From an uncultured Eubacteriales bacterium (lineage in GTDB: Bacteria > Bacillota > Clostridia > Peptostreptococcales > Anaerovoracaceae): a stretch of 64,000 bases of DNA. The translations under genes and the position numbers were made by a program. This document shows positions 40,361 to 42,076 of the stretch, piece after piece (position 1 is the stretch's first letter; every line of letters begins with the position of its first letter). The stretch covers positions 62,001 to 126,000 of the forward strand of contig CACYLW010000008.1 in assembly GCA_902775345.1 (NCBI GenBank), given 5' to 3'. The notes under the pieces are model-generated. The model had not been told where the DNA came from. It saw nothing but the letters and a program-made list of their open reading frames with translations, and made no database searches.

Positions 40361-41809
40361 TTACTGATCTTCTCCGAAATCAGCCTTGTATGCGGCAACC
40401 AGTTTCTCAGGCCAGTCAGATGTCGCCTCAAGCTTTCCTGTAAAGAATCTGAGCGTCGCAGGCTCATGCACGAACCTGAGTCCGCCTATAAGATCCCTGT
40501 GATCAAAGACCCACTTAACTCTGTCTATCACGTATTCGACCTGTGAGAGCGTGAACACTCTTCTCGGAAGAGCCAGTCTGACAAGCTCCATGGACGCGAA
40601 TCTTTCACTTCCGTCAGCGTTCCTTTCTTCAGAAAGAGTGCCTCGCTCCATTCCGCGGATACCGCCGCACAGGTAGAACGCGCACACAAGGGCTCCCGCA
40701 GGGTATTCCTGCTGAGGTATGTGTGAAACGAAAGTGCTTGCATCGACATGCGCTCCCAGACCGCCGGCAGGAGTTATCATCGGAACACCGTACTCCACAA
40801 GTTTGTCGACGCAGTACTTTATGAACTGAGGTCCGTGTGAAATGATATCCATGTCCATCGACTCATCAAAGCCCACTGTCATGGCTTCTATCTCGCGCAC
40901 CGACATGCCGCCGTATGTGAGGAATCCCTCAAACATAGGGACCAGATCCTCCATCGAGTGGAACAGTTCTTCATCCCTGACCAGTATGGCGCCGCCGCGC
41001 GCGAAGCCGAACTTCCTGGCCGAGAAGTATATCATGTCGAACTGGTCAGCGATCTCTCTTGTGATGTCGCGCACGGACATGTCCTTTCGCTCTTCATCAC
41101 GTATTTTTATGAAGTACAGATTGTCCTGCAGAAGCGACGCGTCAAGCACAGACAGGATCCCGTGCTTTCTTGCTACGGCGCAGGCATCCTTGAAGCTCTG
41201 CACCGATACAGGCTGTCCGCCGATCAGGTTGGTGCCTGCCTCGAGTCTCATGAACGCAACGTTGTCAGCGCCTTCCTTTTCTATGCAGGCTTCCAGCTTA
41301 TCCAGATCGATGTCGCCCTTGAACGGGAGATCGCTCTGCGATACCAGGCCCTCATCCTTTACGAGTTCCTCAACATGGCCGCCGAGTCTGGTTATATGAG
41401 CCTTGGCCGTCGTGAAGTGATAGTTCATGATCACACAGCTTCCCGGTTTTACGAATCTGGTCGCAAGGATGTTTTCACACGCTCTGCCCTGATGCGCAGG
41501 CAGGCAGTATTTCATGCCGAATATCTCCTCAAGCTTGTCCCTCATGCGGAAGAACGATTCGCTCCCTGCATAGGCGTCATCAGGCGTCATCATGCCTGCG
41601 AGCATCTGATCGCTCATCGCGTTTACACCGGAATCGGTAAGCATGTCCATGAAGATGTCGCCGTTATGAAGCTGGAATGTGTTGAAACCGGCTTCCCTCA
41701 TCTTGCTGAGTCTCTGTTCGGCAGGCAGAAGCTGAAGCTGCTGAACGATCTTTACTTTATGCATCTCCACAGGAATAGGTTCGTGATCATAGAATTTTAT
41801 TGCGGGCAT
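40361..41809 (-). CDS. beta-eliminating lyase of the tryptophanase / tyrosine phenol-lyase family
   Basis: A 482-residue PLP enzyme. Family marks are LPAHQGRACE (phosphate-binding QGR at 107-109), NLIGGQPVS (194-202), DASLL with Asp223, and the Schiff-base Lys266 in YFSARKFGFARGGAI. Classical tryptophanases and tyrosine phenol-lyases carry S-G/A-KKD here, so this is a third subgroup whose substrate (Trp, Tyr or another beta-substituted amino acid) cannot be assigned from sequence. The start at 41809 has AAGGAGG 10 bases upstream. It is controlled by its own leader: promoter, a hexa-tyrosine leader peptide and an intrinsic terminator upstream (see separate entries), so tyrosine supply is likely the signal. 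Confidence 0.88.
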   Translation of the reverse strand: MPAIKFYDHEPIPVEMHKVKIVQQLQLLPAEQRLSKMREAGFNTFQLHNGDIFMDMLTDSGVNAMSDQMLAGMMTPDDAYAGSESFFRMRDKLEEIFGMKYCLPAHQGRACENILATRFVKPGSCVIMNYHFTTAKAHITRLGGHVEELVKDEGLVSQSDLPFKGDIDLDKLEACIEKEGADNVAFMRLEAGTNLIGGQPVSVQSFKDACAVARKHGILSVLDASLLQDNLYFIKIRDEERKDMSVRDITREIADQFDMIYFSARKFGFARGGAILVRDEELFHSMEDLVPMFEGFLTYGGMSVREIEAMTVGFDESMDMDIISHGPQFIKYCVDKLVEYGVPMITPAGGLGAHVDASTFVSHIPQQEYPAGALVCAFYLCGGIRGMERGTLSEERNADGSERFASMELVRLALPRRVFTLSQVEYVIDRVKWVFDHRDLIGGLRFVHEPATLRFFTGKLEATSDWPEKLVAAYKADFGEDQ

Positions 41810-41840
41810 TGCTGTGTACCTCCTTGTGTCCATCTCCGTC

Positions 41841-41876
41841 CCAAAACAAAAGCTCCGCAGCTGTCTGCTGCGGAGC
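41841..41876 (-). terminator. leader terminator of the lyase gene (attenuator)
   Basis: GCTCCGCAGC (41867-41876) and GCTGCGGAGC (41852-41861) form a perfect 10-bp stem with a 5-base loop, followed on the minus strand by TTTTGTTTT. It lies between the leader peptide and the lyase ribosome site, so transcription stops there unless the 5' arm is sequestered. Confidence 0.93.
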
Positions 41877-41930
41877 GTCATTAACCATGTGCGTCTGTCA
41901 CATTATCATACTACTCACAGCAAAACAGCT
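41860..41930 (-). promoter_or_regulatory. antiterminator: leader 3' end pairs with the terminator 5' arm
   Basis: The RNA segment 41914-41930 (AGCUGUUUUGCUGUGAG, the last codons and stop of the leader peptide) is complementary to CUCCGCAGCAGACAGCU of the terminator (about 41859-41875): AGCUGU/ACAGCU, GCUG/CAGC and GAG/CUC, 13 base pairs interrupted by two small internal loops. This helix and the terminator are mutually exclusive. Confidence 0.8.
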
Positions 41931-41989
41931 ACCCCATCGAGGTAGTAGTAATAATAATATTCTGCTGCGAAGTTGTTTCTCTGTTTCAT
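41915..41989 (-). CDS. hexa-tyrosine leader peptide of the lyase operon
   Basis: A 24-residue ORF, MKQRNNFAAE followed by six consecutive Tyr codons (TAT TAT TAT TAC TAC TAC, 41942-41959), then LDGVAVLL and TGA. It lies between a promoter and a terminator upstream of the lyase gene. A ribosome that stalls at the Tyr codons leaves the antiterminator segment free, while one that reaches the stop covers it. No clear Shine-Dalgarno precedes the ATG; an in-frame TTG eight codons upstream (42013) could extend it. It is too short for ordinary ORF calling. Confidence 0.82.
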   Translation of the reverse strand: MKQRNNFAAEYYYYYYLDGVAVLL

Positions 41990-42029
41990 ACGACGTTGTT
42001 TATTGTTAACCAACTTTAAATATAGCGCT

Positions 42030-42058
42030 ATGTTACTATGCTTCTTTGTTAATTACAA
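42030..42058 (-). promoter_or_regulatory. promoter of the lyase attenuator operon
   Basis: On the minus strand TTGTAA (42053-42058), a 17-base spacer and TAACAT (42030-42035). Start of transcription would be about 30-35 bases before the leader ATG. An overlapping alternative -10 is TATATT. Confidence 0.6.
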
Positions 42059-42076
42059 CAAATATCACATTTGTTT

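What the first reader, a model, noticed from the sequence alone, without database searches (positions are those of the whole stretch)
41841..42058. Hexa-tyrosine leader peptide with a switchable terminator in front of a tryptophanase/tyrosine phenol-lyase family gene
The region contains, in order on the minus strand, a promoter, a 24-codon ORF with six consecutive Tyr codons, an antiterminator segment made of its last codons, and a perfect intrinsic terminator before the lyase. The antiterminator (41914-41930) can form 13 pairs with the 5' arm of the terminator. This is classical ribosome-mediated attenuation, and a stall at Tyr codons would favour antitermination. That sign is opposite to what a tyrosine-degrading enzyme needs, so the enzyme may work biosynthetically, respond to general starvation, or be controlled by nascent-peptide arrest like TnaC (which also has 24 residues). 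I know of no described Tyr-codon attenuator for this enzyme family.
Basis: partly seen in the sequence, partly recalled or inferred. Interest (0 to 1): 0.9.

Follow-up and report, generated by a model that had tools for sequence, protein, structure and literature searches.

The report
Tyrosine-starvation RNA switch before phenol-lyase-like gene
A gut bacterium puts a phenol-lyase-like gene behind an RNA switch that should turn it on when tyrosine runs short, and relatives use a different tyrosine sensor for the same kind of gene, so this supposed tyrosine-degrading enzyme may really make tyrosine, perhaps from phenol.

Summary
In detail: on the minus strand a 24-codon leader ORF with six Tyr codons, an antiterminator and an intrinsic terminator precede a tryptophanase/tyrosine phenol-lyase (TPL) family gene. 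The promoter is not confirmed. The leader has the three trp-type helices. In a simple folding model of 23 leaders, a ribosome on the Tyr codons mostly favours antitermination; none, or one past the run, favours termination. The antiterminator RNA is conserved but read in three frames, against TnaC-like arrest. Homologous genes elsewhere carry T-boxes: 26 found, 25 with a UAC (Tyr) specifier. So two unrelated tRNA-Tyr sensors would switch the same kind of gene on when Tyr is short. In the window's genome no prephenate dehydrogenase or chorismate synthase was found. The enzyme group keeps the TPL phenol-site residues but lacks Arg217, Lys256 and Asp258. Best reading: a tyrosine-making (phenol-salvaging) branch of the TPL family under classical attenuation. 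Regulation is well supported by sequence; the chemistry is inferred. The link to TyrA loss is strong in raw counts (p = 3e-8) but unresolved after correction for phylogeny.

The parts
40361..41809 (-). TPL/tryptophanase-family gene, 482 aa (P0001), apparently monocistronic
41819..41825 (-). Shine-Dalgarno AAGGAGG of the lyase
   Evidence: read directly
41915..41989 (-). leader ORF MKQRNNFAAEYYYYYYLDGVAVLL and stop codon
41942..41959 (-). six Tyr codons TATTATTATTACTACTAC, the sensing codons
41960..41970 (-). R1, protector (codons A-A-E and bases before them), pairs with R2
41914..41933 (-). R2, antiterminator strand, overlaps the last codons and the stop of the leader
41859..41872 (-). R3, bases of the terminator arm and loop that pair with R2
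41852..41876 (-). intrinsic terminator hairpin (R3:R4), U tract 41851-41843
42045..42062 (-). palindrome TTTGTT-N6-AACAAA, exact in 5 of 10 aligned rows; operator or promoter part, function unknown
42022..42031 (-). palindrome ATAGCGCTAT, present in 9 of 10 aligned rows (L014 differs); function unknown

Best explanation
This is a trp-type, ribosome-mediated transcription attenuator that senses charged tRNA-Tyr and controls a TPL-family enzyme which most likely supplies tyrosine. With enough Tyr the ribosome reads through the Tyr run to the stop codon, covers R2, and the terminator forms (off). With no ribosome, R1:R2 forms and the terminator also forms (off). When Tyr-tRNA is short the ribosome stalls in the Tyr run, covers R1 and leaves R2 free; R2 pairs with R3 and the lyase is transcribed (on). 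The enzyme would then run in the synthetic direction, joining phenol (from other gut microbes) to serine, or to pyruvate plus ammonia, giving tyrosine in a host in which neither TyrA nor chorismate synthase was found. Shown by sequence and computation: anatomy, conservation, helix co-variation on average, stall logic in a simple model, Tyr-specific T-boxes on homologous genes, no TyrA or chorismate synthase hit in this assembly, TPL-type phenol-site residues. Inferred: that regulation happens in cells; that the reaction is phenol to tyrosine; the co-substrate. My separate estimates: attenuation by Tyr-tRNA 0.92; enzyme serves Tyr supply 0.75; phenol as substrate 0.65.
For: Tyr run of 4-8 codons in 23 of 25 leader regions listed (picked after as leader bearers or close relatives), with synonymous TAT/TAC changes. 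All three helices predicted in 26 of 26 leader blocks, weakly for R1:R2 in L027 and L045; mean cognate R2:R3 energy better than in all 20000 permutations of 21 types. P(terminator), medians over 23 leaders: no ribosome 0.99, Tyr2 0.05, Tyr3 0.01, stop 0.99; median below 0.5 only at codons 2-6 of the run, 0.54 at Tyr1. T-boxes before homologous lyases: 10 in the first set, 16 of 29 loci of a separate phylum sample; specifier UAC in 25 of 26, register checked on T-boxes before thrS (ACC) and TrpB2 (UGG). No TyrA over cut-off and no chorismate synthase in the own genome; 17 of 23 genus lyase genomes show neither. T124, R381, M379, F448 as in TPL. Own genome holds TrpB2 behind a Trp T-box and shows no TrpA, an indole-salvage parallel.
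Against: No wet-lab data. Tyr control against TyrA absence gives Fisher p = 3e-8 in 70 lyases but only 2-3 independent pairs on the tree. Within the genus TyrA is not clearly rarer with the lyase (5 of 23) than in the other 24 genomes (8 of 24; lyase status not checked in all). 43 of 70 lyases have no Tyr sensor found, and 40 of those genomes have TyrA, so the enzyme is not always tied to Tyr need. 13 of 29 phylum-sample loci showed no T-box. One T-box (L196) reads UGC. In the swap test 142 of 420 single non-cognate R2:R3 pairs are stronger than the cognate one, so co-variation is an average effect. L027 does not switch in the model; L017, L018, L029 and L065 switch weakly; with the 5' RNA kept, the window copy still favours the terminator. 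The window's leader lacks a clear Shine-Dalgarno. Loss of R217/K256/D258 could mean another reaction.
Confidence: 0.7

Rival explanations
1. The enzyme is an ordinary degradative TPL, and the attenuator reports general amino-acid starvation so that tyrosine is used as carbon or nitrogen source.
For: Nearest solved structures are TPLs, about 40% identical; part of one clade has a divergent LysR-type gene upstream (cluster of 15 loci, label by eye) and mostly TyrA-positive genomes, which would suit catabolic use there.
Against: Both sensors found are specific for Tyr-tRNA and would switch the gene on only when the substrate is missing. Known TPLs are activated by TyrR (passages of PMC1173090). 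The group lacks R217/K256/D258 of TPL.
Confidence: 0.12
2. The enzyme helps tyrosine supply by another reaction than phenol condensation, e.g. releasing or rebuilding tyrosine from a modified or substituted phenolic.
For: Group-wide changes at R217, K256, D258 and T216 point to altered chemistry; no phenol source was looked for in the genome.
Against: Residues that distinguish TPL from tryptophanase at the phenol site are kept (T124, R381, M379, F448).
Confidence: 0.13
3. Nascent-peptide arrest in the manner of TnaC: free tyrosine stalls the ribosome at the end of a 24-residue leader peptide.
For: 24 residues in the window copy; six Tyr codons; member of the same enzyme family.
Against: R2 is read in three frames in relatives (17, 7 and 2 of 26 blocks) with ends such as VAVLL or CFAV or an early stop; lengths from the nearest in-frame ATG run from 19 to 32 residues. 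In the model a ribosome at the stop codon favours the terminator.
Confidence: 0.03
4. The Tyr run is a chance low-complexity ORF over an ordinary terminator.
For: (TAY)6 also arises elsewhere, e.g. beside DnaA boxes before dnaN in related genera.
Against: Conserved position and synonymous change of the Tyr codons; three helices conserved; T-box counterpart before homologous genes.
Confidence: 0.01

Closest known systems
Ribosome-mediated attenuators of amino-acid biosynthesis (trpL, pheL, hisL type; recalled)
   Same: Leader ORF rich in the sensed codon, R1:R2, R2:R3 and R3:R4 helices, intrinsic terminator, on when the cognate tRNA is uncharged
   Different: Sensed codon is Tyr; controlled gene belongs to a family known as degradative; host is a Gram-positive gut anaerobe. 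Leader peptides replacing T-boxes in Firmicutes are reported for hisS (passages of PMC2965389)
Tyr-specific T-box riboswitch (RF00230)
   Same: Same input (uncharged tRNA-Tyr), same output (antitermination), same gene family in relatives
   Different: Direct tRNA binding instead of ribosome stalling; none in the window
TnaC leader of tryptophanase operons (recalled)
   Same: 24-residue leader before a member of the same enzyme family
   Different: TnaC uses peptide-dependent arrest with free Trp and Rho (recalled); here an intrinsic terminator, and the RNA rather than the peptide is conserved
Tyrosine phenol-lyase (EC 4.1.99.2, e.g. Citrobacter freundii)
   Same: Fold; Schiff-base Lys257, Tyr71, Arg100, Thr124, Arg381, Arg404, Phe448 (roles recalled)
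   Different: About 39-40% identity; R217L, K256R, D258F/L/I, T53V in nearly all, T216S; below the TPL equivalog cut-off; opposite regulation (TPL is TyrR-activated, passages of PMC1173090)
Stand-alone TrpB salvage of indole to tryptophan (Bifidobacterium; abstract of PMC11085991)
   Same: Gut bacterium rebuilds an aromatic amino acid from an aromatic end product; the own genome has TrpB2 behind a Trp T-box and shows no TrpA
   Different: Other enzyme family and amino acid; no phenol-to-tyrosine counterpart met in my searches

Membership tests
trp-type ribosome-mediated attenuator | short ORF with a run of codons for the sensed amino acid | tested here: met
   Tyr run in 23 of 25 leader regions; TAT/TAC changes. 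Translation itself not tested
trp-type ribosome-mediated attenuator | mutually exclusive protector, antiterminator and terminator helices | tested here: met
   26 of 26 blocks, R1:R2 weak in L027 and L045; permutations as good as cognate: 0 of 20000 for R2:R3, 332 of 20000 for R1:R2; single non-cognate R2:R3 pairs stronger in 142 of 420
trp-type ribosome-mediated attenuator | stall at the regulatory codons frees the antiterminator; completion restores the terminator | tested here: met
   in silico only: P(term) below 0.5 in 20 of 23 at Tyr3 and in 0 from codon 8 on; weaker when the 5' RNA is kept
trp-type ribosome-mediated attenuator | controlled gene makes the sensed amino acid | tested here: inconclusive
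   indirect: no TyrA or chorismate synthase found in the host, Tyr T-boxes on homologous genes
trp-type ribosome-mediated attenuator | readthrough changes with tRNA charging in cells | not testable with these tools
   needs reporters or in vitro transcription-translation
TnaC-type arrest leader | conserved arrest peptide sequence | tested here: not met
   R2 read in three frames; C-termini differ
T-box riboswitch (window locus) | RF00230 match upstream of the gene | tested here: not met
   none in the window at gathering score; found before 26 homologous lyases, 23 at gathering score and 3 below it
tyrosine phenol-lyase (TIGR02618 equivalog) | score over curated cut-off | tested here: not met
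   441.1 against 720.7 bits
tyrosine phenol-lyase (TIGR02618 equivalog) | phenol-site residues T124, R381, M379, F448 (roles recalled) | tested here: met
   118 of 118 proteins for T124, R381, M379; 117 of 118 for F448, L065 being cut short there
tyrosine phenol-lyase (TIGR02618 equivalog) | R217, K256, D258 at the cofactor site (roles recalled) | tested here: not met
   L, R and F/L/I in 118 of 118; kept in the 7 TPL/tryptophanase relatives aligned
tryptophanase TnaA (TIGR02617, NF053783) | score over curated cut-off | tested here: not met
   334.7 against 825.8 and 397.1 against 750 bits
PRK13238 tryptophanase-like subfamily (NF009709) | score over curated cut-off | tested here: met
   565 against 285 bits

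The most novel reading that the evidence does not exclude
A widespread branch of the TPL family (43 of 398 genomes sampled across the phylum, the own included) is a tyrosine synthase: it rebuilds tyrosine from phenol, independently of prephenate and TyrA, and is switched on by uncharged tRNA-Tyr through at least two unrelated RNA sensors. With TrpB2 for indole, such gut bacteria would live on aromatic waste of their neighbours, turning the toxin precursors phenol and indole back into protein building blocks.
Probability: 0.6. Interest if true: 0.9.

Novelty: new variant of a known kind. Interest (0 to 1): 0.77.

Why it matters
TPL is described as catabolic and as a source of phenol, a uremic-toxin precursor, in the gut (abstract and passages of PMC11259132; passages of PMC1173090). 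If this branch runs the other way, many genomes labelled tryptophanase or TPL are misread, gut communities contain a phenol sink, and there is a natural route to tyrosine outside the prephenate pathway. It also gives a clear case of a leader-peptide attenuator and a T-box serving the same gene family for the same amino acid, and a Tyr-codon attenuator of a TPL-family gene, for which I met no description (paper searches).

Tried and rejected
TnaC-like arrest: disfavoured by the frame shifts of R2. Promoter: no convincing sigma-70 site; only partly conserved palindromes. Operon or neighbourhood clue to function: none; neighbours differ between lineages. Exclusion of lyase by TyrA within the genus: not seen (5 of 23 against 8 of 24). 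Phylogeny-corrected link of Tyr control with TyrA absence: only 2-3 independent pairs, cannot reach significance. Tyr leaders of L108/L109: real Tyr runs with good Shine-Dalgarno, but the stall scan gave no switch at their terminator, so their mechanism stays open; they are still counted as Tyr sensors in the tables. (TAY)6 in other genera of the family: in 15 of the 19 loci read closely it sits beside DnaA boxes just before a dnaN-like gene (oriC), not in a leader. In the stall scans everything 5' of the ribosome's leading edge was left out; a masking version with the 5' part kept gave a weaker shift in the window copy (antiterminator 0.19-0.29 at Tyr2-3, terminator still favoured). The count of structure pairs and covariance-model tools were not used; co-variation rests on the swap test. 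Rows dropped: L094 (G395, TyrA-positive, upstream cut by the contig end) from the 70-row table; L038, L054, L056 and L059 fell out of the first active-site table by clustering and were checked; 13 of the 42 new phylum hits had no locus fetched. For TyrA in the genus I counted only matches of 64 bits or more; G430, G431 and G434 have short matches of about 27 bits, over Pfam's cut-off with their neighbours, which I took for cross-hits.

Full report
WHAT IS THERE. On the minus strand, reading down from about 42060, the window holds two palindromes, a leader ORF (41989-41915, MKQRNNFAAEYYYYYYLDGVAVLL), a terminator (41876-41852 plus U tract) and a 482-aa gene (41809-40361) with AAGGAGG before it. 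The leader RNA folds far better than shuffles (z = -4.27, 0 of 200). Rfam finds no known element there (its only window hit at gathering score is a tRNA). (TAY)6 occurs once in the window's 2.25-Mb genome and in 21 of 47 genus genomes; in 19 of these 21 it stands just before the lyase, in one (G428) it is an orphan leader with terminator but another gene downstream, in one (G376) it lies inside a long protein.

THE SWITCH. Leader DNA of 25 loci was listed, picked after as leader bearers or close relatives; 23 have a Tyr run of 4-8 codons. The two without, L020 and L024, have only 177 and 248 bases of upstream sequence. Tyr codons vary between TAT and TAC, so the amino acid is kept. Around them RNA is kept: R1 (GCAGCAGAA or similar, giving the recurrent AAE/TAE before the run), R2 (GTAGCTGTTTTGCTGTGA) and the terminator R3:R4. 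R2 lies in three frames relative to the Tyr run: 17, 7 and 2 of 26 blocks (one block, L130, repeats L029, and one is the orphan leader), so the peptide after the run changes while the RNA stays. In the swap test on 21 distinct types, cognate R2:R3 averages -23.7 kcal/mol against -21.85 for permuted pairs (0 of 20000 as good); R1:R2 averages -13.1 against -12.5 (332 of 20000 as good). The effect is one of averages: 142 of 420 single non-cognate R2:R3 pairs are stronger than the cognate one. The distant copies L045 and L049, from genomes titled Saccharibacteria, keep the plan with different letters.

STALL LOGIC. With the ribosome's leading edge 12 bases past the first base of the A-site codon and the RNA behind it left out, the median P(terminator) over 23 leaders is 0.99 with no ribosome, 0.54, 0.05 and 0.01 at Tyr1, Tyr2 and Tyr3, and 0.99 at the stop codon. 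Scanned codon by codon, the median falls below 0.5 only for codons 2-6 counted from Tyr1 (0.05, 0.01, 0.04, 0.32, 0.44; five leaders have runs of only 4 or 5) and is 0.94 or more on either side; before the run up to 8 of 23 leaders still fall below 0.5, after it at most 2 of 23. Exceptions: L027 does not switch; L017, L018, L029 and L065 switch weakly. A version that keeps the 5' RNA gives a smaller shift for the window copy. This is equilibrium folding, a plausibility test and not proof.

THE SAME KIND OF GENE UNDER ANOTHER TYR SENSOR. Relatives without the Tyr leader can carry a T-box. In the first set, 8 of 14 loci scanned reach the Rfam gathering score and two more (L054, L059) lie just below it; the rest of the first set was checked with motifs only. 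In a separate sample of the phylum, 43 of 398 genomes have the lyase at E <= 1e-150, the own included; of the 29 new loci fetched, 15 have a T-box at gathering score and L173 one below it; the other 13 of 29 show none, and 13 further genomes with a match had no locus fetched. Reading the specifier slot by eye, 25 of 26 are UAC (Tyr); L196 is UGC. The slot was checked on two T-boxes of the own genome: ACC before thrS (named by eye) and UGG before a TrpB-like gene. A further Tyr leader stands before a DAHP-synthase-like gene in G107 (L151; gene named by eye), the expected place for a biosynthetic attenuator. L108 and L109 have a third kind of Tyr leader whose switch I could not model.

THE ENZYME. 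It is far over the cut-off of the broad PRK13238 subfamily but below the TPL and both tryptophanase equivalogs. Nearest structures are TPLs at about 40% identity (predicted model with mean pLDDT 82.7). Against C. freundii TPL numbering, 89 relatives (85, the window's own included, and the 4 left out there) and 29 more keep T49, Y71, R100, T124, N185, D214, K257, M379, R381, R404 and F448 (L065 is cut short before F448), with the phenol-site residues as in TPL and not as in tryptophanase (D/I/C or V/H in the four tryptophanase-like relatives aligned). All 118 have L for R217, R for K256 and F, L or I for D258. The roles of these residues are recalled, not tested. So it is a distinct branch with a TPL-like substrate site and an altered cofactor site.

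THE HOST. In the own genome (90.5% complete) prephenate dehydrogenase is not found over cut-off (best 23.9 bits against 26.5) and chorismate synthase not at all. Of 23 genus genomes with the lyase (71-96% complete), 5 have TyrA (counted at 64 bits or more), 6 have chorismate synthase (one partial) and 17 show neither. Outside the genus, TyrA was not found in 10 of 14 genomes whose lyase has a Tyr sensor and in 3 of 43 without one. Over all 70 lyases tested the table is 19/8/3/40, p = 3e-8, but the tree offers only 2-3 independent pairs, so relatedness could explain it. On that tree all 22 rows outside one 48-row clade have a Tyr sensor, and 5 of 48 inside it do. The order-wide rate of TyrA over cut-off is 234 of 393. 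TrpA was not found in the own genome and is over cut-off in only 2 of 28 genomes tested, while the own genome has a TrpB2-type gene (680 bits against 366) behind the Trp T-box. Indole-to-tryptophan salvage through a tryptophan synthase beta subunit is published for bifidobacteria (abstract of PMC11085991).

INTERPRETATION. Two unrelated sensors with the same input and sign, on homologous genes, in hosts many of which lack the normal route, fit a tyrosine-supplying enzyme. TPL chemistry is reversible (recalled) and phenol is produced in the gut by TPL-bearing bacteria (PMC11259132, passages). Hence the best reading: tyrosine from phenol. The regulatory half is strong; the chemical half is inference. 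In the 48-row clade, mostly TyrA-positive and mostly without Tyr sensors, the same active site may be used for something else or in the other direction.

LITERATURE. Ten full-text searches listed no paper whose title or abstract start describes a Tyr-codon attenuator or Tyr T-box for a TPL-family gene, or phenol-based tyrosine synthesis as natural metabolism; only openly licensed papers are held, lists were capped and most hits were seen as listings. Seen by passages: PMC7461572, PMC1262725, PMC2965389, PMC11259132, PMC1173090, PMC11477304; abstract and outline: PMC11085991.

One search was added to recount. It changed these facts, none of which moved the odds: four lyases missing from the first active-site table were checked and agree; the count of non-cognate pairs that beat cognate ones is now told; conservation of the first palindrome is 5 of 10 rows.

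Noticed in passing
L118:1501-1764 (-), own genome G000:C11: T-box with UGG specifier before a TrpB2-type gene, no TrpA found in the genome: likely indole salvage to tryptophan
   Followed up: partly
L119 (G428:C75:13787-13804): Orphan Tyr leader MFRISNAADYYYYYYFSRQLKKQFAVR with R1, R2 and terminator, but no lyase match in the 3-kb locus; the next gene looks like an endonuclease IV (by eye)
   Followed up: partly
L151 (G107): Tyr leader MNLVCRYYYYYYGKRSLS and terminator before a DAHP-synthase-like gene (by eye)
   Followed up: partly
L108, L109 upstream of the lyase: A differently built Tyr leader (MLSTTFKTTKYYYYYYTECSVS in L108) with good Shine-Dalgarno; the stall scan shows no switch, so its mechanism is open
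   Followed up: partly
L144-L146, L148-L150, L157, L159-L163, L165, L168, L169: (TAY)6 runs beside DnaA boxes just before a dnaN-like gene in 15 of 19 loci read: looks like the DnaA-trio element of oriC (name recalled)
   Followed up: partly
L196:2991-3211 (-): The only lyase T-box whose specifier slot reads UGC (Cys) and not UAC; a T-box from the same genus code (L199) reads UAC
   Followed up: no
L063, L064, L070, L071, L076, L077, L079, L080, L082-L085, L088, L089: A LysR-type gene (by eye) is the divergent upstream neighbour of the lyase in these 14 loci (cluster of 15), in the clade mostly without Tyr sensors; possible catabolic or other control
   Followed up: no
L045, L049: Genomes titled Candidatus Saccharibacteria (0.8-0.9 Mb) carry the lyase with the same type of Tyr leader, and no TyrA or chorismate synthase was found in them; horizontal transfer or misbinning
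   Followed up: partly
window 42022-42062 (-): Palindromes TTTGTT-N6-AACAAA (exact in 5 of 10 rows) and ATAGCGCTAT (9 of 10 rows) upstream of the leader
   Followed up: no
L065, L103: The lyase match is continuous only to residue 431, suggesting a frameshift or sequencing error near the C-terminus
   Followed up: no
L020, L024: The two share the same stretch just upstream of the lyase, unlike the other leaders, close to a contig end; perhaps the end of a mobile intron (by eye)
   Followed up: no
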